The notes beneath the pieces were generated by a model. It had not been told where the DNA came from. It made no database searches and saw only the letters and a list, made by a program, of their open reading frames with translations. From NCBI GenBank assembly GCA_035629175.1, contig DASPIL010000037.1:1-64000 (forward strand): a stretch of DNA of 64,000 bases, read 5' to 3'. This DNA comes from Verrucomicrobiia bacterium (GTDB taxonomy: Bacteria > Verrucomicrobiota > Verrucomicrobiia > Limisphaerales > DASXHY01). Below, one piece after another: positions 10,300 to 59,981 of this stretch. Positions within the stretch are counted from its first letter, which is position 1. Every line of letters starts with the position of its first letter. The position numbers were made by a program, and so were the translations under genes.

Positions 10300-10460
10300 A
10301 TTCAGGTCTGTAGCTCCAACAGTTGCTCGTTCGAGAACGTGCGCGAGAATAACGCGTCGACCGCCTGCGAGGGAATCAAAATCTCTGTCGATAACGAGCG
10401 TGGGACGCGGGTTTCAAACGGTCTTGCCCGTCGCTGTCGGGCCGGGGAGAAATCCAATTA

Positions 10461-11363: not shown

Positions 11364-11674
11364 AAACAGCGGCTTTGCAGGCGCGGAATCAGCGTGGCAA
11401 GTTCGGTTCGGAGGCGCGAGGAAAACCTGAGGCGACCAGGCAGCGAATGCATTCGCCTTCGCTTGCTTCGCAAACCGCAGTGCCCGCGCGCTTTACGATT
11501 GTTAGCGCTCGGCGTTCCCGCCCTTCGGTTGTCAAGGCGCGGTAAGCATCCGCCAATTTCGGGAAAGAGTGTGCATCAGAGCGCGAATAGTCTCGTGCTC
11601 ACCCTATGGGCAATTGGCATCCAATCATAGCACCAGCGGCCCCTGACGAGCGCCGGTCCAACCCACGAGATTTC
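11364..11674. other. Divergent intergenic region before cytochrome cluster
   Basis: About 310 bp separate the GldG-like gene (minus) from the 9-heme cytochrome gene (plus). Promoters for both must lie here, but I found no convincing -35/-10 pair, operator or structured RNA. Confidence 0.5.
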
Positions 11675-13264: not shown

Positions 13265-13278
13265 GGGGCGCAATTACC

Positions 13279-14133
13279 ATGAGACTTCCAAACAGGATCA
13301 AGAATATTCCAGCAGCCGCGGTTCGTTGGATTGCGCTCGCGGCGGTGGCTGCCGTCGTGGGCACAGTAATGCTTGCGTGCCGCACCACGAATCGGGCTGT
13401 CGTCGTGCTGCCCGATTACCCAGGCGCAAAATACATTGGCTCCAAGGAATGCGAGCAATGTCATGACACCATTTACAGAGATTTCCAAACGGCTGATCAT
13501 GCACGCCTGATCACTGGAGGCGCCAACGCCCTGAATGCCGGTTGCGAATCGTGCCATGGCCCGGGCAGTGTGCATTCCGATTCCGGCGGCGAGATCAAGC
13601 CGCCGTTCAGCTTCTCGTCAGGCCGGCCACAACCCACCAGTGCTCTCGGACGGCAGGGGGTCGACCCCGCCCGCGCCACGGAAGACGTTTGTTATCAGTG
13701 CCACCAAGATGTTCGCGGCGAGTTCAACCTGCCGCATCATCATCCCGTTCCCGAAGGCAAGATGAGTTGCACTCAATGCCATCCACCGCACAAGGGGATC
13801 GCGCATGTGGGCGGCAGCACGCGGCTCACATCGAAGGAAGAGAACTGCATCCAGTGCCACCCGTCGCAGCGCGGCCCGCATGTCTTCGAGCATGAGGCAA
13901 TGCGTGAAGGCTGCTCGGCATGTCACTCGGCCCACGGCAGTGTGAATCCGAAAATGCTGACGGAGCGCGATTCGAACCTGTGCCTCAAGTGCCACTTCCA
14001 GGAGGTGCGCGGCGACAGCCTGCTCATCGGCGGCATTGAACACCGCGACCGTGTTCAGCAGGGAACGTGCTGGACGGCGGGCTGTCACGAAGCCGTTCAC
14101 GGGTCACGCGTGAATTCCTCGCTGCGCTATTAA
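13279..14133 (+). CDS. Eight-heme c-type cytochrome, MtrA/DmsE-like, likely membrane-anchored
   Basis: A 284-residue exported cytochrome with seven CXXCH sites (CEQCH, CESCH, CYQCH, CTQCH, CIQCH, CSACH, CLKCH) and one CX4CH site (CWTAGCH), giving eight likely hemes. The dense, evenly spaced motifs and distal His residues (for example HHHPVPEG and CHSAHGSVNP) resemble the MtrA/PioA/DmsE family, whose members usually have ten hemes. The N-terminus has a hydrophobic segment ending in VMLAC, a weak lipobox, so it may be a lipoprotein. It lies 14 bp after the 9-heme gene and just ahead of the barrel gene. In MtrAB-type conduits the MtrA-like cytochrome sits inside the barrel; the same is inferred here. 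Confidence 0.88.
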   Translation: MRLPNRIKNIPAAAVRWIALAAVAAVVGTVMLACRTTNRAVVVLPDYPGAKYIGSKECEQCHDTIYRDFQTADHARLITGGANALNAGCESCHGPGSVHSDSGGEIKPPFSFSSGRPQPTSALGRQGVDPARATEDVCYQCHQDVRGEFNLPHHHPVPEGKMSCTQCHPPHKGIAHVGGSTRLTSKEENCIQCHPSQRGPHVFEHEAMREGCSACHSAHGSVNPKMLTERDSNLCLKCHFQEVRGDSLLIGGIEHRDRVQQGTCWTAGCHEAVHGSRVNSSLRY

Positions 14134-14191
14134 CCATCAACTCTGAACGCTGATGAAACACCAAGAAACGAATCGCAAAGCGGGAAGGGGA

Positions 14192-16339: not shown

Positions 16340-16370
16340 TCGCGTCAAAACTTCGGCGGCTCGGCGCAGA

Positions 16371-19300
16371 TCACGGTTCGGCCTGGATCCGGAAGAACAC
16401 TGGGTTAGGCTGTGGCGGCGGGGTCCAGATCACGGAATGCGCGGAGGCCCGAATCCAGTCGCTTAGCGCGATCCACTCCGTTAAGTTCGTGCTGCTCCAA
16501 ACGCGGTAACCATGGCCCGGTGCGGCTGGCCAATTAAGTCTGACGTCCCGCTGCGCTGATATCGATGTTGTCACTTTGAAGATCGGGGCTCGCGCACTGG
16601 TTCCTGCGCCAACCTCGACCCGCAGATACTGGGCTGAACGGCTGTTCATGGTGTTCGTAAAAGCCGCCCGGGTGGTGTCGGCCAGCGTCCAGGAATTCAG
16701 CGGAACCCATGCCACGAGGTTGCTGCTGCCCCACACACGATATTGATTTCCGGGAATGGAATTCCACGTCATGCGTATTCCATTTCCCTGCAGCTTCTCG
16801 ACATCCAAGCGGAGGTGTGGCACCGCGTTGTTTGGATCTGTACCCGCCACAAACTCGGCCCAATCGCTTGCGCCGTCGCCGTCGCTATCCGTGCTCATGG
16901 TCCGCTCGGGATCCGCAACCCCGAATGTTTCCATTTCGTAGCCGTCGGGGATCTGGTTCGTATTCGCGTCGAGGAAAGTGTAATTGCCCGCGAACGTGAT
17001 CGTCCCGCCCGCCGCCAGCGCGTTCGTTTGAGGGGCAGGGGTGACATGATACGGTGCGTCCCCAAACTGGATGACATACTGCCCTGGTGCGGCGTTCGTG
17101 ATGACCGTGGAGCGGCCGCTGCCCGTTCTACCGCTTGGGCCGGAAAGCGCAAATACCGATTGCCATAGGTTGTTCGTCACCTCGATTCGCCCCGGCACAA
17201 TGGTGTTCATTTCAATCGAAACGTCATCAATCAGCCAGCCGAGGCGCGGCGGTCCATCGATTGAAAACACGAAGTGATACCAGACGATGTAAACGACCTG
17301 CCCCACGTAAGGCGTGAGGTCGAACTGAAACTCCTCCCACTCGAGGGAAAAATCCTCCGCGAACTGATGCAGCAGAATGGGCGGCGTGGATATGTTGGTA
17401 ATGATCTGGATCGCAGCCAGCTGGAAATCGACTTCGCCCTTGGGCGTGAAATCGTATTGATGTGAGAAACGCAATGTTGCCTGGTTGCCGCCTGTCAGCA
17501 GAATGCCCGGGCTGATCAGGTAGGATTCCATATGCCCAAGCGGTCCGCCACCCAGGTTGCTTCCCCACGCATTGGTCCCGGAACTCGGAACGAGACCGCC
17601 CCCAGGAGTTCCACGTTCCCACTGGGATTCTGACTCGTCCGCCGAAATGACCGACCAATCCAGGCTGCTGACTTCGAGGTTGTCGTTCCACGGGGGCACT
17701 TGCGGATCGAGGGTTGTGAAACTGTAGAGTTGCCCGTTGTTGTCGTCGGTTGTGGCATTTCCGGCGCGATCGCGGCTCGTCACGCGAAAGTAGTAGGTGG
17801 TGTTGGGTTTCAAGCCCGTTAGAAACAGCTCGTGTTCAGTCGTGGGCAGCGCGTCGTACGCAGTGAAGTTGATGGGCAGCTGGTCGGGCGATTCGCCATA
17901 TTGCACCAGCGAATCCGCCGCCTTCGACGTGTTCCAGAAAACCAGCGCTTCCAGGTAACCCGGCTCGATCAGCACGTCCGCAATCACAGGCGCGTTGGTA
18001 TCGAAGGTTGCTGTGACAGAATTGGTTCGGCTGGCCGATGCATCGAAGTAATCAACGCTGACCATGCCGGTTGGCGTTGCAGTGAAGATCCCGGGCGCGC
18101 CGCTGTTGGTTGGAGAAAAAATGATGTCGCCGCGAAACAATCCCGCTCGTGTGGTTTCCGCCAGGATCAGATGCAATTCATTCGTGCCATTGGAGTCACG
18201 AACCGCGATTTCGATTGTGCCCGCGCCGCGCCGATCCGCATCCTCCACTTCCACGAGAGCCCGGCCAGGCAGGGAATAAACGTCGCTGTCGAGGGTAACG
18301 ATGCTTGTGTTGGGTTCCGGAGTAAGGAAAGCGAGAATATTTCGCAGGAGACCGGCCCGATTATTTCCAACTCCGATTCCAAGTGGAATGGCGTCGAGCG
18401 GAAATGACAGATAGACCACCTTTCCGGCAAGATCCAATCCGGTCCGAGGCGAACGCACGCCGACAATCTGATCATCTGCGAGCGCGACCGGAGCTCCATT
18501 CGTGGTGGGTGAAATCCAGTCGGAGGGATCCGTAACGCCGCCAAATTCCAGCAGCGCGAGAAGCTCCGCGTAGGGAGAATAATCCAGCGCAACATCAATG
18601 CCCGCGCCAACCGGATCGCCGCCAAATCCAATGACGTGATTCACGGGCATGTCCTCCACGTTGGCCTGGACCTGCAGGATGTCCCGCGCGAAGTCGGCTG
18701 CCCCCGCCTCGCCCAGGCGTGTCACTGCTTCCATGGAGGCAACGAACAGCGATCCGCCGTTCGTCACGTAACTTGCGAGTCGTTGAACGAGCGCGACGTC
18801 AGGCGCCAGCAGTTCGTCCATCCGCCAGATGACACAACGATAAGATTGCAGTTGCAACAGCGTGGGCGGATCTGTGTCGCGGGCATCGAAGACTTCGTAG
18901 GGCGTGCCCAGACGATCGAGGGCTTCGGTGTAACCCGAAAGCGGCGGCGCGGCGATAAGGCCGCCATAATCGGTGTAAGAATCGAGCAGCAGCACTGCAG
19001 AGGATTGGATGTTCGTGACAGTAAAGAAGGCACCGCTGTTGTCGTTCGTGGCGCGATTTCCCGCCTCATCGATGGCAACGACAAAATAGCGGATCGCGGT
19101 GTTTGGCGGCAGGTTGGCGAGCGAGAACTCGGTCTCGGTTGCAAACACCCGGTTGCTCAATCCGCTGGCCGGGCTTCCCTCACCGAAATAAATTTCCCCG
19201 CGGGCAGGCTCGTCTGTTTCCCACGAAACCGAGACCTCGCCGAAAATCTGCGATACGCCAAGGTTTTGAATGACAGGAGAATTCAAGTCGATCGTCGCAG

Positions 19301-21680
19301 TAAATGTTCGCGATGCCGGGGGAGACGCATCGGTATACGCCACCTCGATTTCATCCCCGTTCGCAACCTGCACCTGTGAGTTACCATTTGGTGCGCCTGT
19401 CACTGTCGCGACGAAGCCCGTAAACACTCCATGGTTCTGGCTGGGAAAAAGCGGGACGGATTTTCCGGCTGGCTCGCTTGTGCTGCGTACGAGCACTGCC
19501 GCGCTGGCCTGGCCTGCAAGGTCATAGTCGACCAAAGTCAGCCGCATTTGGTCAGGCGCACGATAGCTCTCGCGATCAGCAGTGATGATCCCGGTTCCGG
19601 CTGGCGCGAATCCGCCAGAAGTCACAAGCGCAAAATCCTGGTCCAAGCCTGGCGAGTCAATCCGCGCGTCCTCCACGACACGTGTTCCGCGAACGCGAAC
19701 GAGATATTCGCCCGCGACGGGCTCGCTGAGATGAACGGCTTCGACATTGTTGATGGAATCAGCTGGCAGCGTGTCGGGGAGCGATTCGCCGTCGTTGAAG
19801 CGATTGCCGCGATAGATTTCTCCCGTCGGCGAAACCACTTCGAGATCCAGGTCATTGACGAGAGCGACGGCTGCCGCGGGAAGACCCGGGACATCTGTGT
19901 AAGCAAGGGTGACCTTCAAAGGTTCATCAGAAGCCCCAACGAGCACACGCGTTTCAAACACAGCGCCATTGGTCAGAAGACTCGTCTGATCCGTGAACTG
20001 GTAATTGCGTGTTGACCCAATCAAACCGGGCAGATTCACGCGTCCCCATCCTTCATCATTGTTGGGAACCGCGGCGGTCGTGATGCCGTCGTCCATGTCA
20101 CTCGCAGAGTTGATTAACGCCGCTTTGACGAGTGCCGGTGACGGTGTAACTCCCCCCTGCGTAGCGCGCCAGTATTGAACGAAAACGGCTGCTGCGCCCG
20201 CCACCTGAGGTCCAGCCTGGCTCGTCCCGCCCTGATAGAGATAGCTTTCGGATATCGGCCACCACGCGAAGCCGTCGTTCGCGAAGACCGACCGCAACGA
20301 TGCAATCCAACTGCCCGGCGCGACGAGGTCGGGCTTGATGCGTCCGTCGGCGCAGGGTCCGCGACTTGAGAAATCAGCCATCGCATCGCTGCCGTCCGCA
20401 TAAATCGCAAACTCCTCGATTGGCAGGTTGAACCGATCATTTTGTGACGCGCCGGTGGCGATCACGTTCTTTCCCACGGCCGGGCTGCCGATGGTCTGGT
20501 AACCAGGCCCTGCGTTCCCCGCGGAAAATTCCAAAATGTAAGGCTGGTCGCCAAAGGCCAGCAGATCCGCATCGCGAACCAGGGCATCGAATTCCATCGC
20601 GCTGATGTCGTAATGCCCCTGCGTGTCGTCGCCCCAACTGTTTGAGCCGATGTCTGCACCTGCGCGTTTCGCATCACGCGTCACCGTTTCAAAACTCGGG
20701 GGAGGCGCGTACCCGCCTGCCGCATCAAACAGGCGTTGCCCGATCAGGCTCGCCCCGGGCGCCACGCCCAGTCCGTAAAGAAATCCAAGTTCGTCGGTTT
20801 CGCCGATCGCGCCGTTGCCTGCAATGATTCCTGCGCAATGGGTGCCGTGGCTGTGCTCATCCGCGGCGTCCTCCAACTGCCCGGGATTGCCATAATAAAA
20901 AAGCGCCTTCACGCGTCCCTGAATGTCGGGATGCATGAAATTGGTATCGCCACTGTCGAGGCCGCTGTCGGCAACCGCGACGGTGACGCCCGCGCCATTG
21001 TAGCCGAGCGACTGCATGCGGGTCTGGTTGCCTGGCCCATCACCTGCGACGATGCGCGACGAAACTTCATCGTAAAGGCGCATTTGAGGCGCGGGTTCAA
21101 TCCAGAGCACGGCTCCTGATTCCGCCAGCGAATTCAATTGTTCGGGCGAAACCGACCCGCGCAGAACGCGGCTTGGACCCATTACCGTTTCCCGGCTCAC
21201 GGCTGCAAAACGGCTTCGAGCCTGAAGGCGCTCGTTCTCGCTCAGGTCCGGGGCCAGGAGAACGGCGACTTCCATCGCTTGCCCTGGCGATGGCGCGAAA
21301 TCCTTGAGGCGCGATTCTATTTTGTGCTCGGAGCGAAATTCGCCGGCATACCGGACAAACTCCAGCGCCCGGACGCTGGAAGGGGTGGCATTTTCGAATC
21401 GAGCAATAAATGCATCGTCCGGGACGTAGCGCAGCAGTGTCACGCCCTGGCCGGCAAGCTGGGCCCGCCATGCGGGTTGCAGGGCGTCGCGAAACTGGAC
21501 GATGAAGAGTCCTGTGACAGGGCCGGGCAGGGGGCGCGCGGCGGCCGCCCCTGATACCGCTGAAACTTGATTTCTGAGTCGAATTGGCTTTTCCGCAGCA
21601 CCAGCTGGGAAGGCGGAGAGGAAAGTGAGACTGCAAACCAGCAATAGGCTGCAAACGCAACGGGAGACAACCGGGAACAT
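16371..21680 (-). CDS. Giant secreted subtilisin-like (S8) serine protease
   Basis: A 1769-residue exported protease. A signal peptide (to about residue 28) and a propeptide-like region precede the S8 domain with Asp238 (VAVADSGLD), His278 (HSHGTH) and Ser487 (GGTSQAG), plus Asn in EFSAGNAG. A beta domain follows, then fibronectin-like modules (for example SVSWETDEPARGEIYFGE and LVFWNTSKAADS), a MAM/lectin-like region, a calcium-binding DSDGDGASDWAEF motif, and two copies of a C-terminal domain (YRVWGSSNLVAW, YRVWSSTNLTEW) ending in FFRIQAEP. The start at 21680 (ATG) is preferred to a GTG one codon earlier. It is divergent from a large sensor kinase, which might control it. It probably degrades extracellular protein; cell-surface retention is possible. 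Confidence 0.92.
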   Translation of the reverse strand: MFPVVSRCVCSLLLVCSLTFLSAFPAGAAEKPIRLRNQVSAVSGAAAARPLPGPVTGLFIVQFRDALQPAWRAQLAGQGVTLLRYVPDDAFIARFENATPSSVRALEFVRYAGEFRSEHKIESRLKDFAPSPGQAMEVAVLLAPDLSENERLQARSRFAAVSRETVMGPSRVLRGSVSPEQLNSLAESGAVLWIEPAPQMRLYDEVSSRIVAGDGPGNQTRMQSLGYNGAGVTVAVADSGLDSGDTNFMHPDIQGRVKALFYYGNPGQLEDAADEHSHGTHCAGIIAGNGAIGETDELGFLYGLGVAPGASLIGQRLFDAAGGYAPPPSFETVTRDAKRAGADIGSNSWGDDTQGHYDISAMEFDALVRDADLLAFGDQPYILEFSAGNAGPGYQTIGSPAVGKNVIATGASQNDRFNLPIEEFAIYADGSDAMADFSSRGPCADGRIKPDLVAPGSWIASLRSVFANDGFAWWPISESYLYQGGTSQAGPQVAGAAAVFVQYWRATQGGVTPSPALVKAALINSASDMDDGITTAAVPNNDEGWGRVNLPGLIGSTRNYQFTDQTSLLTNGAVFETRVLVGASDEPLKVTLAYTDVPGLPAAAVALVNDLDLEVVSPTGEIYRGNRFNDGESLPDTLPADSINNVEAVHLSEPVAGEYLVRVRGTRVVEDARIDSPGLDQDFALVTSGGFAPAGTGIITADRESYRAPDQMRLTLVDYDLAGQASAAVLVRSTSEPAGKSVPLFPSQNHGVFTGFVATVTGAPNGNSQVQVANGDEIEVAYTDASPPASRTFTATIDLNSPVIQNLGVSQIFGEVSVSWETDEPARGEIYFGEGSPASGLSNRVFATETEFSLANLPPNTAIRYFVVAIDEAGNRATNDNSGAFFTVTNIQSSAVLLLDSYTDYGGLIAAPPLSGYTEALDRLGTPYEVFDARDTDPPTLLQLQSYRCVIWRMDELLAPDVALVQRLASYVTNGGSLFVASMEAVTRLGEAGAADFARDILQVQANVEDMPVNHVIGFGGDPVGAGIDVALDYSPYAELLALLEFGGVTDPSDWISPTTNGAPVALADDQIVGVRSPRTGLDLAGKVVYLSFPLDAIPLGIGVGNNRAGLLRNILAFLTPEPNTSIVTLDSDVYSLPGRALVEVEDADRRGAGTIEIAVRDSNGTNELHLILAETTRAGLFRGDIIFSPTNSGAPGIFTATPTGMVSVDYFDASASRTNSVTATFDTNAPVIADVLIEPGYLEALVFWNTSKAADSLVQYGESPDQLPINFTAYDALPTTEHELFLTGLKPNTTYYFRVTSRDRAGNATTDDNNGQLYSFTTLDPQVPPWNDNLEVSSLDWSVISADESESQWERGTPGGGLVPSSGTNAWGSNLGGGPLGHMESYLISPGILLTGGNQATLRFSHQYDFTPKGEVDFQLAAIQIITNISTPPILLHQFAEDFSLEWEEFQFDLTPYVGQVVYIVWYHFVFSIDGPPRLGWLIDDVSIEMNTIVPGRIEVTNNLWQSVFALSGPSGRTGSGRSTVITNAAPGQYVIQFGDAPYHVTPAPQTNALAAGGTITFAGNYTFLDANTNQIPDGYEMETFGVADPERTMSTDSDGDGASDWAEFVAGTDPNNAVPHLRLDVEKLQGNGIRMTWNSIPGNQYRVWGSSNLVAWVPLNSWTLADTTRAAFTNTMNSRSAQYLRVEVGAGTSARAPIFKVTTSISAQRDVRLNWPAAPGHGYRVWSSTNLTEWIALSDWIRASAHSVIWTPPPQPNPVFFRIQAEP

Positions 21681-21950
21681 CACCAGGGACCCTAGTCGAC
21701 GGCTCGGCGCTTTTCAAGAAACCGTCGATGGCTGGGCGCCAGGCTGCGCCCGGGGGCAAAGAAATGTGTCTATCCGTGCGGATCATCGTCATTCCCGATC
21801 CATCTTACGGCTCAATCCGCACAGGCGGGAGCCGATGAACATCTGTGGCGAACCGGGTTGGTTAAGATTTGCTCGTGCGCGACTGCCCGGCAGGTCAGCG
21901 CCGCGACGGTCCTCCGCGCTCGATGAGCATCATGAATCAACAGCGAATGC

Positions 21951-24900
21951 ATGAATAGTTCCCGCACATTGCGGGTTAATTTTCCGCGGGCACACGGATT
22001 CCAGGCGGCGCTCATTGCGTGCCTGATCTTGCTGCCCATGCTCGCTTGCGCGCTCGATCCGGCGAAATCCATTCTTCAATTCAACTGCTTCAGCTGGACC
22101 CGCGCGAACGGCTTGCCCGCGGATAATATCACGGCGGTCGTGCAGGGTGATGACGGTTACGTCTGGCTGGGAACACGGAATGGCGTCCTTCGATTCGACG
22201 GATTGGGTTTCAAGCGAGTCGACTTCACCTTGCCCGCAGGAAGCGATTACGATATTCGCGCCATTTACCCTGCCGAGGCGGGCGGGCTGTGGCTTGCGAT
22301 CAATTCCGGCACTTGCATCCGCCTGCAAAACGGCCGGGTAGTGTCGGTTCTGCCGAATTCCCTCGGCGACGGCCTGGGTCTCGCCTGTTTTGAAACACGA
22401 AGCGGCGACTTGTGGACGAGCAGCGAAGTGGGAGTCCAGTGGACGGATCGAAGCGGAATGAGCCATGTCGCTGATGCAAAGATAATGAATGTGATGGCGT
22501 TCACCGAGGATCCGCGAGGAAACGTCTGGCTGGCGACTGCCGAGAACGGCCTCTGGCGGTGGAATGGGCGGGAATTTACGCAAATCAAAGATGACCGCCT
22601 GGCCGGCCGGGTTCTGCGCGTCATTACATCAGGGGCGGAGTGCCTTTGGCTGGGAACTGGAACGGGCCTCCTGTGTTATGACTTTGACGGCAACCCGTTG
22701 CCGGGCCCGAAGATCGACAACGAGATCAAAACCGTTCTAGTCGACAGGCATGGAACCTTGTGGCTCGGGACGGCCGGAGAGGGATTGCTGCGTTACCGGG
22801 GCGGCGATGTTACGTCTCTTCGACGCTCTGAAGGTCTTGCTGATGATCGCGTGACATCGCTGTGGGAGGATCAGGAAGGGAGCCTCTGGGTCGGCACACA
22901 CGCAGGGCTGAGCCAGCTTACCGACATTCGATTTCCCATTTTTTCTGTTGCGGGCGGAACGGCGCGCGCGGTGACGCCCACCGCTGATGGCGGTGTTTGG
23001 GTCGGCAGCTCATCTGGTCTCTCGTGGTTAAATGGAGAACGGATCCACAAGCCCGAAGACCTCCCGCAAATGCGGAACCGTTACGTGAAGCTTCTGATGC
23101 AAAGCCGGACTGGCCATCTCTATTTTGTCGACGGCGAAAAGAACCTTCATCTTCTCTCGTGGGACCGCGTGCTTCATTCCTATTCCAATAGAGACTGGCC
23201 AGGAGCCATTGGCGAAGACAGCGAGAGTGTGATTGTCGCGTACGGCGTGCCCCCGGCACTGGCGCGTGAGAAGAATGGCGTCCTCGAGCCCTTCGTTTTC
23301 AACGGCCCCGTCCCGGAATTCTACTGGCCGCACAACATGTGCACGGCCAAAGACGGCTCGCTGTGGGTGGCATCCAACAATGGATTGTTCCGCATCCAAA
23401 ACGGACAGTTTCAACAATGGACCACCCCGCGACTGCCCACGTCGCGCGTTTATTGGGTCTCAGAAGACACGCAGGGGGCCATTTGGGCCGGCATGGCAAA
23501 CGGCATCGCGCGCATCCGCAATGGCGAGGCAACCTTCGTCACTGCGCAACACGGACTTCCGGATGAAAGAGTGTATGCGATGATGGCTGACGACCTCGGT
23601 TCGTGGTGGGTGGCTACTGGATCGGGGATCGTGCGGATCGATGCCAAGAGCTTGAACGATTGCCTCGATGGCAAGCAAACACAGCTGCAAGCGGAGCTGT
23701 TCAACGACTTGGATTCGATCAAATCGAACGATCGCACAGACCAGGAACCATCGATTTGCAAAGATACGATGGGAAGGATATGGGTTCCCACGACGCAAGG
23801 GGTGGCGATGATCAACCCTGGAAATTTCTTCACGAATGCACTTCCGCCGCGCATTCGGATCGAAGACATCACTGTTGACGGCAAAGCCATCGACCGTGCG
23901 ATGTCGGCCGAAGTGTTCGGGTCGTCGCGGCTGGAGATCGCCTTTGCGGTGTTGAGCTTCATTTCTCCCGCGAAAATGCAAGTGCAGTATCAGCTCGTGG
24001 GGTTTGATACCGAATGGCAGGACGCCGGAACGCGCCGGTCGGCAAAATACAATCGTCTGCCGCCTGGCAATTACCGATTCCACCTCCGGGCAGCGAACGC
24101 GGACGGCATTTGGAATCGCGACGGAGCGACGTTTTCATTCCGCGTGCCGCCGCCATTCCACATGACATGGTGGTTCCGCACCTGTTGCGGACTGGGGATG
24201 GGATTGTTGCTGCTCGCCGCCTATCGATGGAAAGTGCACCAAATGGCCGTGCGGCAGCGGCGCTTGCAGAAAGCGAACGAGAGCCTGGAGAACCGGGTGC
24301 GGAGTCGCACGCAAGAACTCGCATACGAACGCGAACTGCTGCGGACGCTCCTCGATTTTTCGCCTGACTCAATATTCTTCAAGGATCTGGAAGGGCGGCT
24401 CGTCAGACTGAGCCGCTCAGAAGCCCAGAACCTGTTTGCCATTGCGATGAGCCGATACCGCCGTGAAAATCCGCAGGGGGAATTGCCGGAACATTTGAAG
24501 AGTATTGAAGCGTTCCACGAATACGCCATTGGGAAATCGGACGCTGACTTTTACGAACCAGAAATCGCGTTGCGCTTCCGGCAGGATGAGGAACAGGTTT
24601 TGCAGAGCGGCAAACCTCTCGTTGGCCGCGTCGATAAGACGATTCTACAGGACGGCCGAACTGTATGGCACATGACCACCAAGGTTCCCTGGCGGGATCC
24701 GGACGGCAGACTCGTGGGGTCGTTCGGAACTTCGCGGGACATTACAGATCTCAAGGAAGCGGAGGAACACGCTGCGGCAGCCAATCAACGGCTGGTGGAT
24801 TTGTCCCGGGAAGCGGGCATGGCAGAGGTTGCAACAGGCGTCCTGCACAACGTTGGGAACGTGCTGAACAGCATCAACGTTTCCACATCCATCCTGAGCG

Positions 24901-25643
24901 ATCGTGTGCGCCAGTCCAAGATATCCTCTGTGGCCCGCGTAGCCGAGCTTTGCGACGAACAGGGCGACCGGCTGGGTGAATTTGTGCAGAAGGATCCCCG
25001 CGGCCGCCATCTGCCAAAATTTCTGAACCAACTGGCGGGCCAGCTTGCTCGCGAACGTGATGAGGCGCTGGAGGAACTGGCGAACCTTCAGAAGAACGTG
25101 GAGCACGTGAAGGAAATCGTCAGCATGCAGCAGAGCTACGCCCGGGTGATGGGCGTCACGCAGCGCATCTCGATCGTCGAGCTGGTGGAGGATGCGCTGC
25201 ACCTGAATGAAGCGGGGCTCTCCCGCCGGCAAATCCAGGTGGTCAGGGATTATCGGGAACCGCTGCCGGAGATTGCCGTGGACAAGCACAAGCTGATGCA
25301 GATCGTCATCAACCTCATTCGAAACGCATTGCAGGCCTGTGAAGATACTGATCGCGCTGACAAAAAAATCGTGGTTGGCATTTTCTGCGAAGGTGCAGAG
25401 ATCCGGATTTCAGTCTCGGACAATGGCGTTGGCATCCCGCGGGAAAACCTGGTGCGAATCTTCAGCCACGGGTTTACAACGCGGAAGGATGGGCACGGCT
25501 TCGGCCTGCATAGCGGCTCTCTCGCCGCAAGGCAAATGGGCGGCAGCATCCTCGTCGAGAGCGACGGCCCGGGTTGCGGCGCTGTGTTTACGCTCGCGCT
25601 GCCCCTAATCGAGGAACTTCAGGAAACCGAACCGGTGTCATAA
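21951..25643 (+). CDS. Beta-propeller sensor histidine kinase with PAS domain
   Basis: A 1230-residue membrane sensor kinase. After a signal peptide (to about residue 33) come two-component-regulator propeller repeats (VWLGTRNGVLRFDG, LWLGTGTGLL, LWVGTHAGLSQL and others, to about residue 620), a Y_Y_Y domain (about 650-720), one membrane helix (CCGLGMGLLLLAAYRW), a coiled coil, a PAS domain (IFFKD, GKSDADFYEPE) and a kinase core. The phosphoacceptor His966 lies in VLHNVGNVLNSINV, and the ATPase has NLIRNALQA, DNGVGIP and GHGFGLH boxes. The periplasmic part resembles the sensors of Bacteroides hybrid systems that detect polysaccharide fragments, but there is no fused regulator and no response regulator gene nearby. 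Its last 25 bases overlap the convergent amidohydrolase gene. Confidence 0.92.
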   Translation: MNSSRTLRVNFPRAHGFQAALIACLILLPMLACALDPAKSILQFNCFSWTRANGLPADNITAVVQGDDGYVWLGTRNGVLRFDGLGFKRVDFTLPAGSDYDIRAIYPAEAGGLWLAINSGTCIRLQNGRVVSVLPNSLGDGLGLACFETRSGDLWTSSEVGVQWTDRSGMSHVADAKIMNVMAFTEDPRGNVWLATAENGLWRWNGREFTQIKDDRLAGRVLRVITSGAECLWLGTGTGLLCYDFDGNPLPGPKIDNEIKTVLVDRHGTLWLGTAGEGLLRYRGGDVTSLRRSEGLADDRVTSLWEDQEGSLWVGTHAGLSQLTDIRFPIFSVAGGTARAVTPTADGGVWVGSSSGLSWLNGERIHKPEDLPQMRNRYVKLLMQSRTGHLYFVDGEKNLHLLSWDRVLHSYSNRDWPGAIGEDSESVIVAYGVPPALAREKNGVLEPFVFNGPVPEFYWPHNMCTAKDGSLWVASNNGLFRIQNGQFQQWTTPRLPTSRVYWVSEDTQGAIWAGMANGIARIRNGEATFVTAQHGLPDERVYAMMADDLGSWWVATGSGIVRIDAKSLNDCLDGKQTQLQAELFNDLDSIKSNDRTDQEPSICKDTMGRIWVPTTQGVAMINPGNFFTNALPPRIRIEDITVDGKAIDRAMSAEVFGSSRLEIAFAVLSFISPAKMQVQYQLVGFDTEWQDAGTRRSAKYNRLPPGNYRFHLRAANADGIWNRDGATFSFRVPPPFHMTWWFRTCCGLGMGLLLLAAYRWKVHQMAVRQRRLQKANESLENRVRSRTQELAYERELLRTLLDFSPDSIFFKDLEGRLVRLSRSEAQNLFAIAMSRYRRENPQGELPEHLKSIEAFHEYAIGKSDADFYEPEIALRFRQDEEQVLQSGKPLVGRVDKTILQDGRTVWHMTTKVPWRDPDGRLVGSFGTSRDITDLKEAEEHAAAANQRLVDLSREAGMAEVATGVLHNVGNVLNSINVSTSILSDRVRQSKISSVARVAELCDEQGDRLGEFVQKDPRGRHLPKFLNQLAGQLARERDEALEELANLQKNVEHVKEIVSMQQSYARVMGVTQRISIVELVEDALHLNEAGLSRRQIQVVRDYREPLPEIAVDKHKLMQIVINLIRNALQACEDTDRADKKIVVGIFCEGAEIRISVSDNGVGIPRENLVRIFSHGFTTRKDGHGFGLHSGSLAARQMGGSILVESDGPGCGAVFTLALPLIEELQETEPVS

Positions 25644-26965
25644 GATGCGCGGGTGGGCGCGCCCTGAGGCGTGATCGCCCACTGGCCTTCAATCATCGAC
25701 GCCATCACTCCTCCGCGGTGATTCACCGCTGCTTCGCTTGCCTGTTGAATGGGACCGTCGTATGGGATGGCAATGACATCCGCCAGCGCACCCTCGATCA
25801 GTTCGCCCGCCTGGCCCTGCAATTGCAAAGCGCGGGCGCCGTTGACCGTTGCCATGCGCAGTATGTCCTTCGGGTTTACCCCAGAAAATTTTTCAGCGAA
25901 GCAGGACATTTCGTCGAACATGCTGAGCTCGACCGAATCGTGCCTGCGTTTGTAAACGGTCGCCAGGCTGTCCGTCCCGAGGCAGACGTTCACGCCCGCG
26001 TGTTGCAGATCGTGAATGGGAAAGTCGGCGTGTTGAAAGTAAAAGTGACTTCGCGGGCAATGCACGACGTGGGCACCATGCGTTGCGAGCAATGCCGGAT
26101 CAGCTGCGTCAATGTAATTCAAGTGAACCGCCAACAGGTTTGGTCCCAAAGCATCAAGGCTGGCCAGCTGCCGGATTGGGGATCCGTGCCCGCAGTCGCT
26201 CATGTCGCGTTCGTTTCTCTTGAGCCAATCGAACATTTCACCTCGCGCGTGCTGAAACATGTCGAATTCAAGCACCGATTCAGAGACGTGGATGGATAAC
26301 AACCAATGGCGTTCGCGCGCTGCCTCGGCTGCAATGCGAATCAGTTCGGGCGCCGTTGAATAGGGCGCGTGTGGCGCCAGGCCAGTGCAGGAGCGGCCGT
26401 CATGCAGATGGTCCGCGCGCTGCAGAGCTTCGTTGAGAATCGACTCAGGTGAGCGCCGACTCCTGACGCCCGTCATCTCCAGCACCGAATGCACTCTTAG
26501 CGGGGTTGCGCTCCATACGTCTGGCAGGAGTTCCGGAACGGCTTCGAAATCCACGACAGTGGTGGTGCCTGTCCGCACCAGCATCTGCGCCCCCTGCAAC
26601 CATGATTCCGCGAACTCCGTGTAATTCCACTCCGCCTTCGCCGCCAGCATCAGCTTGATCCAGTCCGTGAACCGCTTCTGCGGCGGCAGCAAGCCGGCCA
26701 TCCCGGTGTAATCGAGGTGGCAATGCGCGTTGATCAAACCCGGCAGGAGGATGGAATCGCCGAGGTCCATGACATCGCCACGACTCTCGCGTGCGATCTC
26801 ATTCCACGTCCCAACTTTCCTGATGCGATTGCCCGAGATGAGGACGGCGCCGTTGTCGCAGGGCGGCCCCGAAATGGGGAGCAGGATTCGCGAGCGCAGG
26901 ACGATCGGAGCTTCAGAGCTGGAAGACGGGGCGTCCGCAGCTGGCGGCGCATTCTTCTCGTCCAT
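25619..26965 (-). CDS. Amidohydrolase / cytosine-deaminase-like metal-dependent hydrolase
   Basis: A 448-residue cytoplasmic amidohydrolase of the TRZ/ATZ-MtaD group. Metal-binding motifs are LINAHCHLDY (His81, His83), SIHVSES, VHLNY and GTDSL with the catalytic Asp. Members deaminate S-adenosylhomocysteine, 5'-methylthioadenosine, guanine or related compounds, and some act on halogenated triazines; the exact substrate cannot be told here. The start is the ATG at 26965, although two in-frame TTG codons precede it. It lies 29 bp downstream of hpf on the same strand and overlaps the 3' end of the convergent kinase gene by 25 bp. Confidence 0.88.
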   Translation of the reverse strand: MDEKNAPPAADAPSSSSEAPIVLRSRILLPISGPPCDNGAVLISGNRIRKVGTWNEIARESRGDVMDLGDSILLPGLINAHCHLDYTGMAGLLPPQKRFTDWIKLMLAAKAEWNYTEFAESWLQGAQMLVRTGTTTVVDFEAVPELLPDVWSATPLRVHSVLEMTGVRSRRSPESILNEALQRADHLHDGRSCTGLAPHAPYSTAPELIRIAAEAARERHWLLSIHVSESVLEFDMFQHARGEMFDWLKRNERDMSDCGHGSPIRQLASLDALGPNLLAVHLNYIDAADPALLATHGAHVVHCPRSHFYFQHADFPIHDLQHAGVNVCLGTDSLATVYKRRHDSVELSMFDEMSCFAEKFSGVNPKDILRMATVNGARALQLQGQAGELIEGALADVIAIPYDGPIQQASEAAVNHRGGVMASMIEGQWAITPQGAPTRASYDTGSVS

Positions 26966-55572: not shown

Positions 55573-55712
55573 ACGCGAAGTGATCAACGCGGTGCGGGAA
55601 ACTTTCGCGTGACAGCCAGGCGGCCCAATGCTACTGGAGATCGACCACCACTCAATGTTCGCCGGCGAAGACGTTTCACGCCGCCGGATTCAGCAACGCG
55701 ATGGAGATGTTT

Positions 55713-58514
55713 ATGTCGAACCGCTTCACTCGGGTGTTTGGCCGCAGCGCTTGCGGGGCTTTTTTGATGGTGTATGTGTGGGCGCACGCAGCGCCCGGGG
55801 ATCTGGATTTAAGTTTCGCAGGTACGGGAACCGCCCGCACCGGTTTTGGCGGAGGCAATGACCAGGCCCACGCGGCCGCCGTCCAGGCCGATGGCAAGCT
55901 TCTGATGGGAGGCTACTGTTCGAGCGTGGCTTTCACTTCCAGCGAGTTTTGTCTTGTCCGCTTTGACACCAACCATGTGCTCGACGCCTCGTTTGGCGAT
56001 GGTGGCCAGGTGTTGACGCCTGTGAATGCGTCATTGATCCCTTTCACAGATGCGCGGATTACTGCGCTCAAGGTTCAGGCTGATGGACGAATTGTTGCCG
56101 GCGGGTATTCCTACATCGGAACCAATTATCCGACATTCACGCTCGTTCGTTACCTCCACGATGGATCGCTCGATTCCAGTTTTGGAACCAACGGGAATGG
56201 GATCGTGCAGACGGATTTCGGCGAGCCGACCCGGCTTCGCGCGCTGGCGATCCAAGGCGACGGAAAGATTGTTGCGGTCGGATCGACGACATACCCTGCG
56301 AATGCAGGAGAAGGAGCGGTGGCGCTGGCCCGATACACGACGAATGGCCTGCCCGATCCATCGTTTGGAAATGCCGGAACGCAGATCACGACGGGCGTGA
56401 CAGGATACACAGGGGCTCACGCCGTCACCATCCGGCCGGACGGAAAAATTCTGGCCGCCGGAATCGGAATTGGCGCGGGACATAATGGGATCGACTTTGC
56501 GCTCTACTGCTACACGACGAACGGGGTGTTGGATCCGCAGTTTGGCGGAGGAACGGGGAAGGTTTTCACACAGATTTCCACGAACAACAATTTGTATTTT
56601 GATTCCGCGAATGCGGTGGCGATTCAATTCGGAAACAATTCCGTGCAGAATCCGGACCGCATTGTTGTGGCAGGCTCGTATCGGACTTCTGGTTCGCCCA
56701 GCGAAACCCAATTCGCACTGACTCGTTATCAAATGGATGGGGCGCTCGACACGACGTTCGGCAACAATGGGATTGTCACCAATCGGCTGGCGAGTGGAGG
56801 AATGGTGTTCAACCTCAGCAGCGCCATTGGACTGGTGGTTCAAGGGACGTTCACTCAGCCGCGGCGGATCCTTGTTGGGGGATACAGTCTCAATGGCAGC
56901 AACCGTTACTTCGTCATGGCGCGGTACAACAGCGCCGGGGGGCTCGATACGACATTCGGGAACGAGGGGACGGGAATCGCCGCGGTGCCCCTGGGGAATC
57001 GGGACGCAGCGGCAACGGCCCTGGCGGTGCAGCCGGGACGGTTTATCGTTGCAGGATATGCGGCGCAGAACGCGCAAAATTATAACTTTGCGGCGGTGGC
57101 ATTCGACTCTGCTGGGATCCTGGACACCACTTTCGGCGCAGAAGGATTTCTGGTGTCGGATATATCAGATGTGAGTTCGAGCGGCCGCGGCGTCGCAGTT
57201 CAGCCCGATGGGCGCGTGATCGTCGCGGGAAGCGCAAATGACGGGGAAAGGGACCAGGTTGCTGTTGCCCGTTTCAACGTGGACGGCTCATTGGATGCAA
57301 CGTTCGGCGCTGGCGGAAAGGTGCTCACACCTGTGGGTTCGGGCTCAGCCTCGGGAACGGCCGTTGCCCTGCAACCGAATGGCGGGATCGTGGTGGCGGG
57401 GACTGCGAACGATGATTTTCTCGTGGTGCGGTATCAAGGCAACGGCGCGCTCGACCCTTCATTTGGTACAAATGGAATCGTCACCACATCGATTGGCAGT
57501 GGATCCGACGTCGCGAACGCAATCGCCCTCCAGGCGGATGGCAGGCTGGTCGTTGCGGGAAATAGCGACAACGGGAGCAACACGGACTTTGCGGTTGTCA
57601 GATACACCACCAACGGTTTTCCCGATGTGTCATTTGATGGCGACGGAAAAACAACCACCGCGATTTCAACGAGCAGCGATTATGTGAATGCAGTGCAGGT
57701 GCAGGCGAACGGCAGGATCGTGGTCGCAGGATATGCTGAAATCAACGGAAACATCGACGCGGCTCTGGTGCGCTATCATACGAACGGCATGCTCGATAAT
57801 TCGTTTGGCTCTTTCGGACGGGTCGCCACGGATGTTGGAAACGGGACGACCGATGCAGGGTTTGCCTTGTTGATTCAACCCGACCAGCGGATCGTCGTCG
57901 CTGGGTATTCTGCGACGGGTGCGAACATTGATGTAATGTTGCTTCGCTACACGACCAACGGAATTCTCGATTCCAGCTTCGATGGCGACGGAAAGGTGAC
58001 CACCGCGATAGGTCTGGCGGCGGAGTACGCGGCGGCGGCGGCGCTGCAGTCCGACGGAAAGATCGTGGCTGCGGGTGTTGCAAGCATAGGATCGCATCTG
58101 GAGTTTGCGGCCGTTCGTTACCTTGCAGATGGGTCACTTGACGGTTCATTTGGACTCGGAGGGAAGGCGGTGGTCGATTTTGCCAACAACGCGGATAACA
58201 CAGGATACGCCATCGCCCTGGATGGTTCGGGACGGGTTGTGATTGCAGGGGAAGCGGGAGGATTGATGGGAGTGGCGCGTTTGCAGGGCGATCCGTTCCT
58301 GAGGATTCTCTCGATCGCTCGGCTGGCCAACGGGCAGGTGGCGCTGACAGGGAGCGGGTCCCCAGGCGCGACTCACAGCCTGCAGGCAATTGGAAGCCTG
58401 GGCGGCAACTTCAGCACGATCGCCCCGGTGATTGCGGATTCGGATGGGTCGTGGGAATTCCTGGATACGTCAACCCCCGCAACAAATCGCTTTTACCGGT
58501 TGTCGTTGCCGTAG
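55713..58514 (+). CDS. Secreted delta-60 repeat protein
   Basis: A 933-residue exported protein made of about 14 delta-60 repeats of 55-70 residues, each with a pattern VQADGKIVVAG...ALVRYTTNG.LD.SFG..G. After these comes the C-terminal beta domain (ILSIARLANGQVALTG to NRFYRLSLP) shared with other secreted proteins here. A signal peptide ends near residue 27 (AHA). The start at 55713 has GGAG seven bases upstream; the ATG at 55701 would lie inside that site. The repeats are expected to form a beta-propeller or superhelix. The role is unknown; surface adhesion or binding is plausible. Confidence 0.88.
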   Translation: MSNRFTRVFGRSACGAFLMVYVWAHAAPGDLDLSFAGTGTARTGFGGGNDQAHAAAVQADGKLLMGGYCSSVAFTSSEFCLVRFDTNHVLDASFGDGGQVLTPVNASLIPFTDARITALKVQADGRIVAGGYSYIGTNYPTFTLVRYLHDGSLDSSFGTNGNGIVQTDFGEPTRLRALAIQGDGKIVAVGSTTYPANAGEGAVALARYTTNGLPDPSFGNAGTQITTGVTGYTGAHAVTIRPDGKILAAGIGIGAGHNGIDFALYCYTTNGVLDPQFGGGTGKVFTQISTNNNLYFDSANAVAIQFGNNSVQNPDRIVVAGSYRTSGSPSETQFALTRYQMDGALDTTFGNNGIVTNRLASGGMVFNLSSAIGLVVQGTFTQPRRILVGGYSLNGSNRYFVMARYNSAGGLDTTFGNEGTGIAAVPLGNRDAAATALAVQPGRFIVAGYAAQNAQNYNFAAVAFDSAGILDTTFGAEGFLVSDISDVSSSGRGVAVQPDGRVIVAGSANDGERDQVAVARFNVDGSLDATFGAGGKVLTPVGSGSASGTAVALQPNGGIVVAGTANDDFLVVRYQGNGALDPSFGTNGIVTTSIGSGSDVANAIALQADGRLVVAGNSDNGSNTDFAVVRYTTNGFPDVSFDGDGKTTTAISTSSDYVNAVQVQANGRIVVAGYAEINGNIDAALVRYHTNGMLDNSFGSFGRVATDVGNGTTDAGFALLIQPDQRIVVAGYSATGANIDVMLLRYTTNGILDSSFDGDGKVTTAIGLAAEYAAAAALQSDGKIVAAGVASIGSHLEFAAVRYLADGSLDGSFGLGGKAVVDFANNADNTGYAIALDGSGRVVIAGEAGGLMGVARLQGDPFLRILSIARLANGQVALTGSGSPGATHSLQAIGSLGGNFSTIAPVIADSDGSWEFLDTSTPATNRFYRLSLP

Positions 58515-58520
58515 CGGGAA

Positions 58521-58549
58521 TGGTAGCGCGTACGGGAAGCGAACCGTCT
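58521..58549 (-). repeat. tRNA-Glu 3'-end remnant, att-like direct repeat
   Basis: TGGTAGCGCGTACGGGAA at 58521-58538 is identical to 59907-59924, the 3' end (acceptor and T-arm) of tRNA-Glu. The match continues for about 11 more bases with one substitution and one missing base. Both copies point the same way and enclose 1.39 kb. This is the geometry left by site-specific integration at a tRNA 3' end. Confidence 0.8.
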
Positions 58550-58560
58550 GTTCCAGTGTT

Positions 58561-59330
58561 TTAGGTTTTATCGAACGCCGCGCGCGCGCGTTGATTACTG
58601 TTGTCAGTTGGCGCGGCCTGCACTGAACCGCTTTCGCGCGGACATGGCTGTTCGCGCTCCTTCGGAATTCGTGGCGCTTCATCCGACCCGTAACGGCCAC
58701 GATACGGCGCGCTGCTCCAGGGCCATTCCGACGGTTCGCGCACCAGCCTCGCTTTGACCGGATTGTTTCGATATAACGCACCACGCGCCGGTAATGCTCC
58801 TCATCCCGGATGTAGCGGTCAAAATAATCGGCCTGCCAGAAGGTTCCGCCCGTCGCATTCAGAAGTTTGTTGGCCCGGCTGCTGGTATACGACTTCCAAC
58901 CATGCAACACCTCCGACAGCGGCTTCGCCATTTCGGCCAGGACATGAACATGATTCGGCATGAGGCACCAGCCCAGCAGCCGATACGCCTTTCCGTCGTG
59001 GAACCAAAGGTTCTCCTGAACCATCCGAGCAACGCGGGCATCGCGGAGGTGACACGCCCCAAGCCCGCGATCCAGCAGGACTTCCATTTGCCGGAACCGC
59101 TCGCGGTCGTCCTCCAGTTGCATTGCCGCGGCCCGCTCGTGGCGGAGTTCAGCAGGAATGGAGTCGGCCAGCCGGTAAGTAATGAACTGCCGGATGCCGG
59201 GGGCGTCGAAGTGGGGCAGGTAACCTCGCGAGTGCCAGCCTTTGAACCCAAGCGCCTTGTCCTCCTCCGTAGGCTGGTAATGCCATTGGCGCTTTTCAGC
59301 AACGACTTGATGGGCGGGCTTGCGTTTCAT
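58561..59330 (-). pseudogene. REP-associated tyrosine transposase (RAYT), frameshifted
   Basis: The gene encodes an IS200-like Y1/HUH transposase: WCLMPNHVHVLAE has the HUH pair His127/His129, and FWQADYFDRYIRDEEH has the catalytic Tyr (169 or 173). The frame is broken near 58766-58768: an A-run gives GAAAC where GAA-AAC would keep frame, so one base seems lost. After the break the family sequence resumes in another frame (NPVKARLVREPSEWPWSS and SAPYRGRYG) and ends at 58561. Translated without the repair, the frame instead runs on through the tRNA remnant to 58470. REP hairpins lie just upstream of the start at 59350-59688, as is usual for RAYTs. A sequencing error would mimic the break. Confidence 0.85.
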
Positions 59331-59349
59331 GCTGGTCGGTGAATCGGAG

Positions 59350-59369
59350 CGCGGACAGCCTTGTCCGCG
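59350..59369 (+). repeat. REP hairpin copy 1
   Basis: CGCGGACAGCCTTGTCCGCG is a perfect hairpin with an 8-bp stem and a GCCT loop. It lies 20 bp upstream of the RAYT start codon and is preceded by GGAG. Confidence 0.85.
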
Positions 59370-59383
59370 AGCTGAATCTCAGG

Positions 59384-59407
59384 AGCGCGGACAGCCTTGT
59401 CCGCGCT
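59384..59407 (+). repeat. REP hairpin copy 2
   Basis: The same hairpin as copy 1 with the stem extended to 10 bp by AG/CT. The spacing from copy 1 is 36 bp, in the same direction, and again preceded by GG. Confidence 0.85.
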
Positions 59408-59627
59408 GCCTGGCTTTGGCGGATATCGTGCCGGGTCTGGTGGAGGAGAGAACCGGGTGGAAAGGTCGTGAAACAATTCACTCCGCAAGTCCGGGTGAGT
59501 CGGTGGAGATTGTGCTTCATACGGGGCTGCCGGTTCCATACATAGCCATCAGCAAGGTGCCCTTCGGAAAAAGGCGAGCAACCGAATTGGCGAGGCAGTC
59601 GGCGTGATCCTCTCGGCCGAAGGGAGC

Positions 59628-59645
59628 GCGGACAGCCTTGTCCGC
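59628..59645 (+). repeat. REP hairpin copy 3
   Basis: GCGGACAGCCTTGTCCGC, a 7-bp stem with the same loop and the same GGGAGC 5' flank. It lies immediately beside the hsdM-like scrap. Confidence 0.8.
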
Positions 59646-59670
59646 ACGTGTTTTCGAGGCGTTGCTTCCG

Positions 59671-59688
59671 GCGGACAGGGCTGTCCGC
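59671..59688 (-). repeat. REP hairpin copy 4, inverted
   Basis: Read on the minus strand this is GCGGACAGCCCTGTCCGC with the GGAGC flank on its 5' side, so it is inverted relative to copies 1-3. Copies 3 and 4 form a convergent pair, as in BIME-type arrays. Confidence 0.8.
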
Positions 59689-59696
59689 GCTCCTGT

Positions 59697-59778
59697 CTTT
59701 TCCTCCATCGCGATCTCGCTCTTGTTGAGGAGGCCGCCGGAGCTGCAGCAGGGGTCGTAGATCTCCATGCCGGTGAAG
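59697..59778 (-). pseudogene. Fragment of a type I restriction-modification methylase (hsdM)
   Basis: One minus-strand frame reads FTGMEIYDPCCSSGGLL then NKSEIAMEEK, which matches the S-adenosylmethionine-binding motif I of HsdM (usually DPTCGSGGLL). Two changes (the C-C-S and S in place of T-C-G) and the lack of any flanking homologous sequence mark it as a short remnant. REP copy 4 begins directly after it. Only about 27 residues survive, so the assignment is tentative. Confidence 0.5.
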
Positions 59779-59906
59779 ATGAGCGGGAGGGGAGGCCGCC
59801 AAAAAGGTGCCCGTGAACATAAAATAACGCATTGCCATGCCAGACTCCGGCGGGGAGGGTATTCCAAGCAAAAAGCCGGGCAAGCCTTGATTCTATTGGG
59901 GATTAT

Positions 59907-59981
59907 TGGTAGCGCGTACGGGAATCGAACCCGTCTTTCAGCCTTGAGAGGGCCGTGTCCTAGCCGATAGACGAACGCGCC
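59907..59981 (-). tRNA. tRNA-Glu (anticodon CUC)
   Basis: A complete 75-base cloverleaf with encoded CCA: acceptor GGCGCGT with ACGCGCT (first pair G-U), D-arm GTCT...GGAC, anticodon stem CGGCC/GGCTG with loop CUCUCAA (anticodon CUC), and T-arm ACGGG-TTCGATT-CCCGT. It reads GAG glutamate codons. Its 3' end is repeated at 58521. Confidence 0.95.

What the first reader, a model, noticed from the sequence alone, without database searches (positions are those of the whole stretch)
58521..59981. Miniature island between tRNA-Glu and a copy of its 3' end
An 18-base exact direct repeat of the tRNA-Glu 3' end, extending to about 29 bases with one mismatch and one gap, lies 1.39 kb from the intact tRNA on its downstream side. 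That is the arrangement left by integrases that use tRNA 3' ends. The segment holds a dead RAYT, REP hairpins and an hsdM scrap but no integrase, so it may be the shrunken remains of a larger island, or a hitchhiking element.
Basis: seen in the sequence. Interest (0 to 1): 0.66.

Follow-up and report, generated by a model that had tools for sequence, protein, structure and literature searches.

The report
Fossil mobile island at tRNA-Glu
A 1.4-kb stretch next to a tRNA-Glu gene is the worn-down remains of a mobile DNA island that once inserted at the gene's end carrying a phage-defence operon, an ordinary kind of genomic fossil whose intact relatives can still be seen at the same gene in related bacteria.

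Summary
tRNA-Glu(CUC) lies at 59907-59981 (-), and the only other copy of its 3' end in the genome is at 58521-58549: same strand, downstream side, 18 exact bases, 29 with one mismatch and one gap. The island interpretation is well supported, although no close relative was available to show an empty site. In the order (320 genomes searched) this tRNA-Glu is an integration hotspot: 14 other genomes carry an orphan 3' end without the rest of the tRNA. Beside six of these a tyrosine integrase starts 73-127 nt inside. One family of these elements ends, next to the tRNA, in a conserved ~70-bp sequence, and the window keeps 31 bp of it at the right place (59869-59899). The inside holds collinear scraps of a type I restriction operon (hsdM with an internal deletion, then hsdS) pointing away from the tRNA. 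An intact hsdM-hsdS operon lies in the same position beside the same element end at tRNA-Gly in a relative. A frameshifted RAYT and REP/REPIN repeats were added later or came along. No integrase relic remains. It is a shrunken, dead tRNA island: a new member of a known kind, of modest interest. The order-wide family of tRNA-targeting integrases is the more useful by-product.

The parts
59907..59981 (-). intact tRNA-Glu(CUC) with encoded CCA: integration target, regenerated
   Evidence: ARAGORN; Rfam tRNA 54.5 bits
58521..58549 (-). displaced copy of the tRNA-Glu 3' end (acceptor 3' strand, T-arm): 29 nt, one substitution in the T-loop and one deletion
59869..59899 (.). 31-bp relic of the tRNA-side end of the integrase element family (core CTTGATTCTATTGG)
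   Evidence: nhmmer model of 10 genomes, E 0.0014; the only hit to the window at E below 6; exact 13-mer at tRNA flanks
59772..59790 (-). hsdM scrap, N-terminal part (PLIFT)
   Evidence: 19/19 bases to L217 hsdM, 18/19 to L221
59694..59773 (-). hsdM scrap, methylase motif I region, joined to the N-terminal scrap by an internal deletion of about 490 bp
   Evidence: 84% DNA identity to G280; 79% of 24 aa to L221 HsdM
59535..59594 (-). hsdS scrap (LANSVARLFPKGTLLMAMYG)
   Evidence: tblastn against plasmids E 3e-3, the 20 listed of 31 records all annotated subunit S; collinear with L221
59615..59695 (.). REPIN (two REPs in inverted orientation) between the hsdM and hsdS scraps
   Evidence: 95% identical to G000:C37:77085-77165; many similar copies in the order
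59346..59405 (.). two REPs in direct orientation (59346-59369, 59382-59405)
58636..58661 (.). REP at the other end of the RAYT
58650..59330 (-). RAYT (REP-associated Y1 transposase) pseudogene, one frame change near 58770
   Evidence: PF01797 34.4 bits; NF047646 59.7 bits, cut-off 80; 75% DNA identity to an intact gene in G068
55701..58514 (+). 937-aa gene converging on the tRNA; its stop lies 6 bp before the displaced tRNA end, so the outer flank looks undisturbed

Best explanation
The 58521-59906 segment is the collapsed remains of an integrative element. Inferred history: the ancestral tRNA-Glu gene ended 6 bp from the stop of the gene at 55701-58514. A circular element carrying a copy of the tRNA-Glu 3' end recombined with it through a tyrosine integrase, acting within the ~30-bp T-arm/acceptor core. 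The element's copy restored the tRNA, and the original 3' end was displaced to 58521. The element's tRNA-side end (59869-59899) and, next to it, a type I restriction-modification operon reading away from the tRNA are still recognisable. Deletions then removed the integrase, its end of the element and nearly all of hsdM/hsdS. A RAYT with its REP/REPIN repeats inserted, or came with the element, and was itself inactivated by a frameshift. The displaced tRNA end, free of selection, has begun to mutate. Shown: the repeat, its orientation, the element-end relic, the scraps, and intact relatives at the same gene. Inferred: the integration event itself, and membership of the particular integrase family.
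For: (1) Only two copies of the tail in the genome, in the configuration integrases leave. (2) In 320 genomes of the order, 22 have two or more tail matches; 15 of them (window included) hold an orphan 3' end without the tRNA body, 5 have two full tRNA copies, and 2 were not examined. (3) Control with the tRNA 5' end: 6 of 320 genomes have two matches; in the 5 examined all are full tRNAs, 1 was not examined. (4) A tyrosine integrase (PF00589; three of them checked) starts 73-127 nt inside the orphan tail in 6 of 14 non-window loci (2 others are cut by contig ends). G077 and G225 share the integrase (76% DNA identity), another segment (71%) and the tRNA-side end (84%) across families. (5) The tRNA-side end model from 10 genomes hits the window only at the tRNA flank, E 0.0014. 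(6) hsdM and hsdS scraps in the order and strand of an intact operon, 255 bp in place of 2.66 kb. (7) In G105 an intact hsdM-hsdS(-hsdR) cluster lies beside the same end motif and a tRNA-Gly tail. (8) In G208 another relic: the same end beside tRNA-Glu and a broken integrase piece about 1.46 kb downstream.
Against: No empty site from a close relative. No integrase or integrase relic in the segment. The integrase-side end of the element family is not recognisable at 58546-58648. The end relic is short (31 of ~74 model positions, 18 bits) and sits 7 nt from the tRNA tail where intact ends leave 13. G+C of the segment (0.603) is close to the window's (0.584), so composition gives no support. 8 of 14 orphan loci show no integrase within reach, 2 of them because the contig ends.
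Confidence: 0.9

Rival explanations
1. The 58521 copy is a decayed second (tandem) tRNA-Glu gene, and the segment between is ordinary intergenic DNA with repeats.
For: Tandem full tRNA-Glu copies exist in the order: G122 (3.8 kb apart) and G109 (1.6 kb apart).
Against: The 46 nt of tRNA body beyond the tail are absent: local alignment score no better than shuffles (p 0.15-0.32) or random window stretches (p 0.32-0.41). The match stops where element att cores in other genomes stop. The element end relic beside the intact tRNA is unexplained by this view.
Confidence: 0.05
2. A small non-autonomous element that entered already without an integrase (a MITE-like hitchhiker mobilised in trans), not a shrunken larger island.
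For: No integrase relic; a distant relative of the family integrase exists elsewhere in the genome (C67, 31% identity, E 1.2e-47).
Against: hsdM/hsdS scraps show internal deletions of a once larger cargo; no second copy of the segment in the genome; the tail copies differ and the T-loop is mutated.
Confidence: 0.04
3. The RAYT/REP unit itself made the structure: RAYT-mediated insertion of DNA captured the tRNA end.
For: RAYT and 5 of the 7 REPs found in the genome (up to 3 mismatches) lie inside the segment.
Against: RAYT relatives in other genomes are not at this tRNA (e.g. G068:C217); 15 genomes carry orphan tails with other contents; RAYTs are not known to duplicate tRNA ends (recalled).
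Confidence: 0.02

Closest known systems
Genomic islands in tRNA genes as catalogued by Islander (PMC4383910, passages read)
   Same: Intact tRNA gene plus displaced 3' fragment in the same orientation on the downstream side; T-arm core; outer flank intact
   Different: No integrase inside and 1.39 kb long, so it fails Islander's integrase and 2-kb length filters; a relic, not a putatively active island
tRNA gene fragments left by integration (PMC9897764, passages read)
   Same: Partial tRNA copy beside a full copy, explained by integration of a mobile element
   Different: The element here is almost fully lost; the fragment is only 29 nt
Integrase elements at tRNA-Glu(CUC) in the same order (G225 10.8 kb, G077 4.2 kb)
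   Same: Same target gene, same core, same tRNA-side end sequence
   Different: They keep the integrase 127-128 nt from the tail, and G225 a DUF3987 gene; the window has neither
REP/RAYT (REPIN) systems (PMC3116915, abstract start seen in listing)
   Same: Y1 transposase gene flanked by REP palindromes, REPIN pair nearby
   Different: Broken by a frameshift; only 7 REPs found in the genome, all on one contig

Membership tests
tRNA-integrated genomic island (Islander criteria) | intact tRNA gene | tested here: met
tRNA-integrated genomic island (Islander criteria) | 3' fragment downstream, same orientation, terminal part of the tRNA | tested here: met
   fragment reaches CCA
tRNA-integrated genomic island (Islander criteria) | fragment not in a full tRNA and not over a conserved protein domain | tested here: met
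   one tRNA in the window; the Y1_Tnp domain of the ORF across it ends before the fragment
tRNA-integrated genomic island (Islander criteria) | integrase gene between tRNA and fragment | tested here: not met
tRNA-integrated genomic island (Islander criteria) | length 2-200 kb | tested here: not met
   1386 bp start to start
Integrase element family of G225/G077 | conserved ~70-bp tRNA-side end beside the tRNA CCA | tested here: met
   31 of the positions, E 0.0014, right place; short, so not fully secure
Integrase element family of G225/G077 | integrase starting 125-142 nt inside the tail | tested here: not met
   seen in 26 of 30 family loci
Integrase element family of G225/G077 | integrase-side end sequence with TTAGCA repeats | tested here: not met
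   no hit at 58546-58648
Type I restriction-modification system | complete hsdM, hsdS, hsdR | tested here: not met
   only scraps of hsdM and hsdS
REP-associated transposase (RAYT) | Y1 transposase domain flanked by REPs | tested here: met
   PF01797 34.4 bits over cut-off 23; REPs on both sides
REP-associated transposase (RAYT) | intact reading frame, full score for NF047646 | tested here: not met
   59.7 bits, cut-off 80; frame change near 58770

The most novel reading that the evidence does not exclude
The segment samples an undescribed, order-wide clade of integrative elements. Its integrases move between several tRNA genes (Glu, Gly and others) with a fixed layout: a tRNA 3'-end copy ~127 nt before the integrase, a conserved other end, and defence cargo such as type I restriction placed right at the tRNA side. 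Old copies collapse in place and become landing sites for RAYT/REPs, so this tRNA-Glu flank records layered invasions.
Probability: 0.45. Interest if true: 0.45.

Novelty: new member of a known kind. Interest (0 to 1): 0.3.

Why it matters
Tools such as Islander require an integrase and at least 2 kb, so relics like this are not counted, although they show where elements have been and how they die. Here the same tRNA-Glu gene can be seen with intact 4-11 kb elements, partly decayed ones and this 1.4-kb fossil across one bacterial order. That makes the decay series and the cargo placement (restriction operon at the tRNA side) testable.

Tried and rejected
An empty site was sought through 57 order-level relatives and 70 MgtE-anchored loci of the genome collection; none of the 70 keeps the flanking genes. 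Integrase relics: a weak tblastn match (E 0.036 in a 1.4-kb database) at 59761-59868 was followed with a family profile and rejected as chance. A decayed second tRNA was rejected. The integrase family was not found in IMG/VR, and four pattern hits there are unrelated sequences without a tRNA tail, so these are not catalogued as viruses in that collection at that sensitivity. The gap pattern misses the window itself (its gap is 7, not 10-18); this was seen and handled with the profile. That profile was built from ends picked by the CTATTGG pattern (or, for G056, by eye), so their own scores are not independent; the window and G078 were not used to build it. Base composition gives no signal. Papers: two searches on tRNA integrases in Verrucomicrobia and Planctomycetes listed nothing on these elements; I read only listings there. 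PMC9897764 and PMC4383910: passages seen. PMC3116915: listing and start of abstract only.

Full report
Observation. The window holds one tRNA, tRNA-Glu(CUC) at 59907-59981 on the minus strand, with CCA encoded. A copy of its 3' end lies at 58521-58549 on the same strand, 1386 bases away on the downstream side: 18 bases exact, 24 of 25 without gaps, 29 with one gap. A scan of the own genome (5.41 Mb, 108 contigs) at up to 3 mismatches found no other copy closer than 2 mismatches; chance would give 7e-7 matches of this quality. The stop codon of the 937-aa gene at 55701-58514 is 6 bases before the copy, so the outer flank looks undisturbed.

Not a second tRNA gene. The sequence beyond the 29-nt tail was aligned with the remaining tRNA body; the score is reached by 15-32% of shuffles and 32-41% of random window stretches. 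The substitution falls in the T-loop (position 58 by the usual tRNA numbering, recalled), as expected of a copy no longer under selection.

The target is a hotspot. A 25-nt tail pattern at up to 2 mismatches was run over 320 genomes of the order: 227 have a match, 22 have two. Of these 22, 15 (window included) have an orphan tail without the tRNA body, 5 have two full tRNA copies (G056, G122, G129, G145, G237; G145 and one G129 copy judged from the paired 5' and 3' coordinates), and 2 (G073, G074) were not examined at the second hit. In G077, G225, G277 and G078 the orphan lies on the tRNA's own contig, on its downstream side and in the same orientation, at 4.2, 10.8, 5.5 and 5.7 kb; in the other ten it is on another contig. 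As a control, the 5' end of the tRNA (up to 2 mismatches) has two matches in 6 of 320 genomes; the 5 examined are full tRNAs, G172 was not examined.

Integrases. Searching the ORFs of the fetched loci with the G225 integrase found an integrase starting 73-127 nt inside the orphan tail (128 in L037) in 6 of 14 non-window loci (L037, L046, L051, L057, L059, L061); two loci (L044, L049) are cut by the contig end soon after the tail, and six show none. Three were confirmed by Pfam PF00589. In 320 genomes, 111 have a relative at E <= 1e-20. In the 30 loci fetched from that search, 26 have a tRNA 3'-end-like sequence 125-142 nt before the integrase start, most of them from tRNAs other than Glu (one of the 26, L180, is degenerate); 4 have none (L183, L186, L198, L202). 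So the family targets several tRNA genes. The window's genome has five tyrosine recombinase matches, none on this contig; one (C67) is a distant member.

The element end. Next to the intact tRNA, elements of G077, G101, G225 and others share a ~70-bp sequence ending CTTGATTCTATTGG followed by 13 nt and the tRNA tail. A profile from ten genomes (window and G078 not used) was run over the window and all loci fetched by then. In the window it hits 59869-59899 with E 0.0014; the next window hit has E 6.3. The exact 13-mer TTGATTCTATTGG occurs in about 2.1 Mb of loci (overlapping ones included) only at tRNA tails, apart from three IMG/VR loci that were fetched with that pattern. One of the tails is of another tRNA: in G105 the motif stands beside a tRNA-Gly tail and an integrase, so it belongs to the element, not to the tRNA-Glu neighbourhood. 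In family f57, G056 has one tRNA-Glu contig with the end and one without, with the same bases upstream of the tRNA, which looks like an occupied and an unoccupied version in the same assembly (inference). The integrase-side end is not recognisable in the window, nor is any integrase piece.

Cargo relics. On the minus strand, reading away from the tRNA, 59790-59772 matches the N-terminal part of hsdM, 59773-59694 its motif I region (84% identical to G280), and 59594-59535 an hsdS stretch. In L221 these three pieces lie in the same order and strand over 2.66 kb; in the window they span 255 bp, with a REPIN (59615-59695) between the hsdM and hsdS pieces. The hsdS peptide (28 aa) found 31 plasmid records, best E 3e-3; all 20 listed are annotated subunit S. 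The hsdM peptide (31 aa) found 172 records, best E 4e-3; all 20 listed are annotated as class I DNA methyltransferases. In G105 a complete-looking HsdM (PF02384, HsdM_N), HsdS (PF01420, with a GIY-YIG domain) and HsdR N-terminus lie left of the same end motif, also pointing away from the tRNA side. That copy has no integrase of its own among the ORFs listed and no distal tail was found for it at up to 7 mismatches, so it too may be old. Its HsdM does not look like the window's HsdM type at the N-terminus (by eye).

RAYT and REPs. 59330 down to about 58650 encodes a Y1 transposase (PF01797 34.4 bits) that changes frame near 58770; the intact relative in G068 is 75% identical in DNA. REPs lie on both sides. 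In the whole genome only 7 REPs (up to 3 mismatches) were found, all on this contig: 5 in the segment and a REPIN at 77 kb; the reversed-pattern control gave 2. Similar REPINs are common in the order. The RAYT may have come with the element or later; this is not settled.

Decay elsewhere. G208 carries the element end beside tRNA-Glu, a broken integrase piece about 1.46 kb downstream of the tRNA, and no detectable tail: a second relic of this kind. In G042, G230, G232, G259 and G262 the end is also present next to the tRNA; the downstream ORFs of these loci were listed but their function was not tested.

Verdict. The segment is best read as the collapsed remains of a tRNA-Glu-integrated element that carried a type I restriction operon, later host to a RAYT/REP unit. 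What is missing for proof is an empty or full site in a close relative. Membership of the particular integrase family rests on a 31-bp end relic in the right place and is likely (about 0.75, my estimate), not certain. By Islander's criteria it would be rejected for lack of an integrase and for length, so it is filed as a relic, not as an active island.

Taxon. MgtE relatives with the highest identity are records titled Verrucomicrobia, Verrucomicrobiia or Verrucomicrobiaceae, so it is very likely a member of Verrucomicrobiota (inference).

Noticed in passing
L223 and L226 (G105:C354), oriented 8480-25784: Tandem layout at tRNA-Gly(TCC): a 7.0-kb integrase element between tRNA and tail copy, and beyond it a type I restriction cluster ending in the same element end; its HsdS has a GIY-YIG nuclease domain in the same chain.
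   Followed up: partly
L094:13085-13165 (G000:C37:77085-77165): A REPIN 95% identical to the one in the segment, the only other REP site found in the genome.
   Followed up: partly
L040 and L041 (G056): Two contigs of one assembly share tRNA-Glu and its upstream bases but differ downstream, one with and one without the element end: possible occupied and empty versions in one population.
   Followed up: partly
L043 (G005:C68): Phage structural-looking genes (by eye, not searched) beside an orphan tRNA-Glu tail: a possible prophage at the same target, integrase not identified.
   Followed up: no
L222 (G109:C315) and L039 (G122:C131): Two full tRNA-Glu(CUC) genes 1.6 kb and 3.8 kb apart; one in G109 carries a weak match to the element end (13 bits).
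   Followed up: no
L177-L206: Integrase family whose members sit about 127 nt from 3' ends of different tRNAs; the T-arm is followed by a shared TTCGTTTCC/TTCGATTCC-like stretch.
   Followed up: partly
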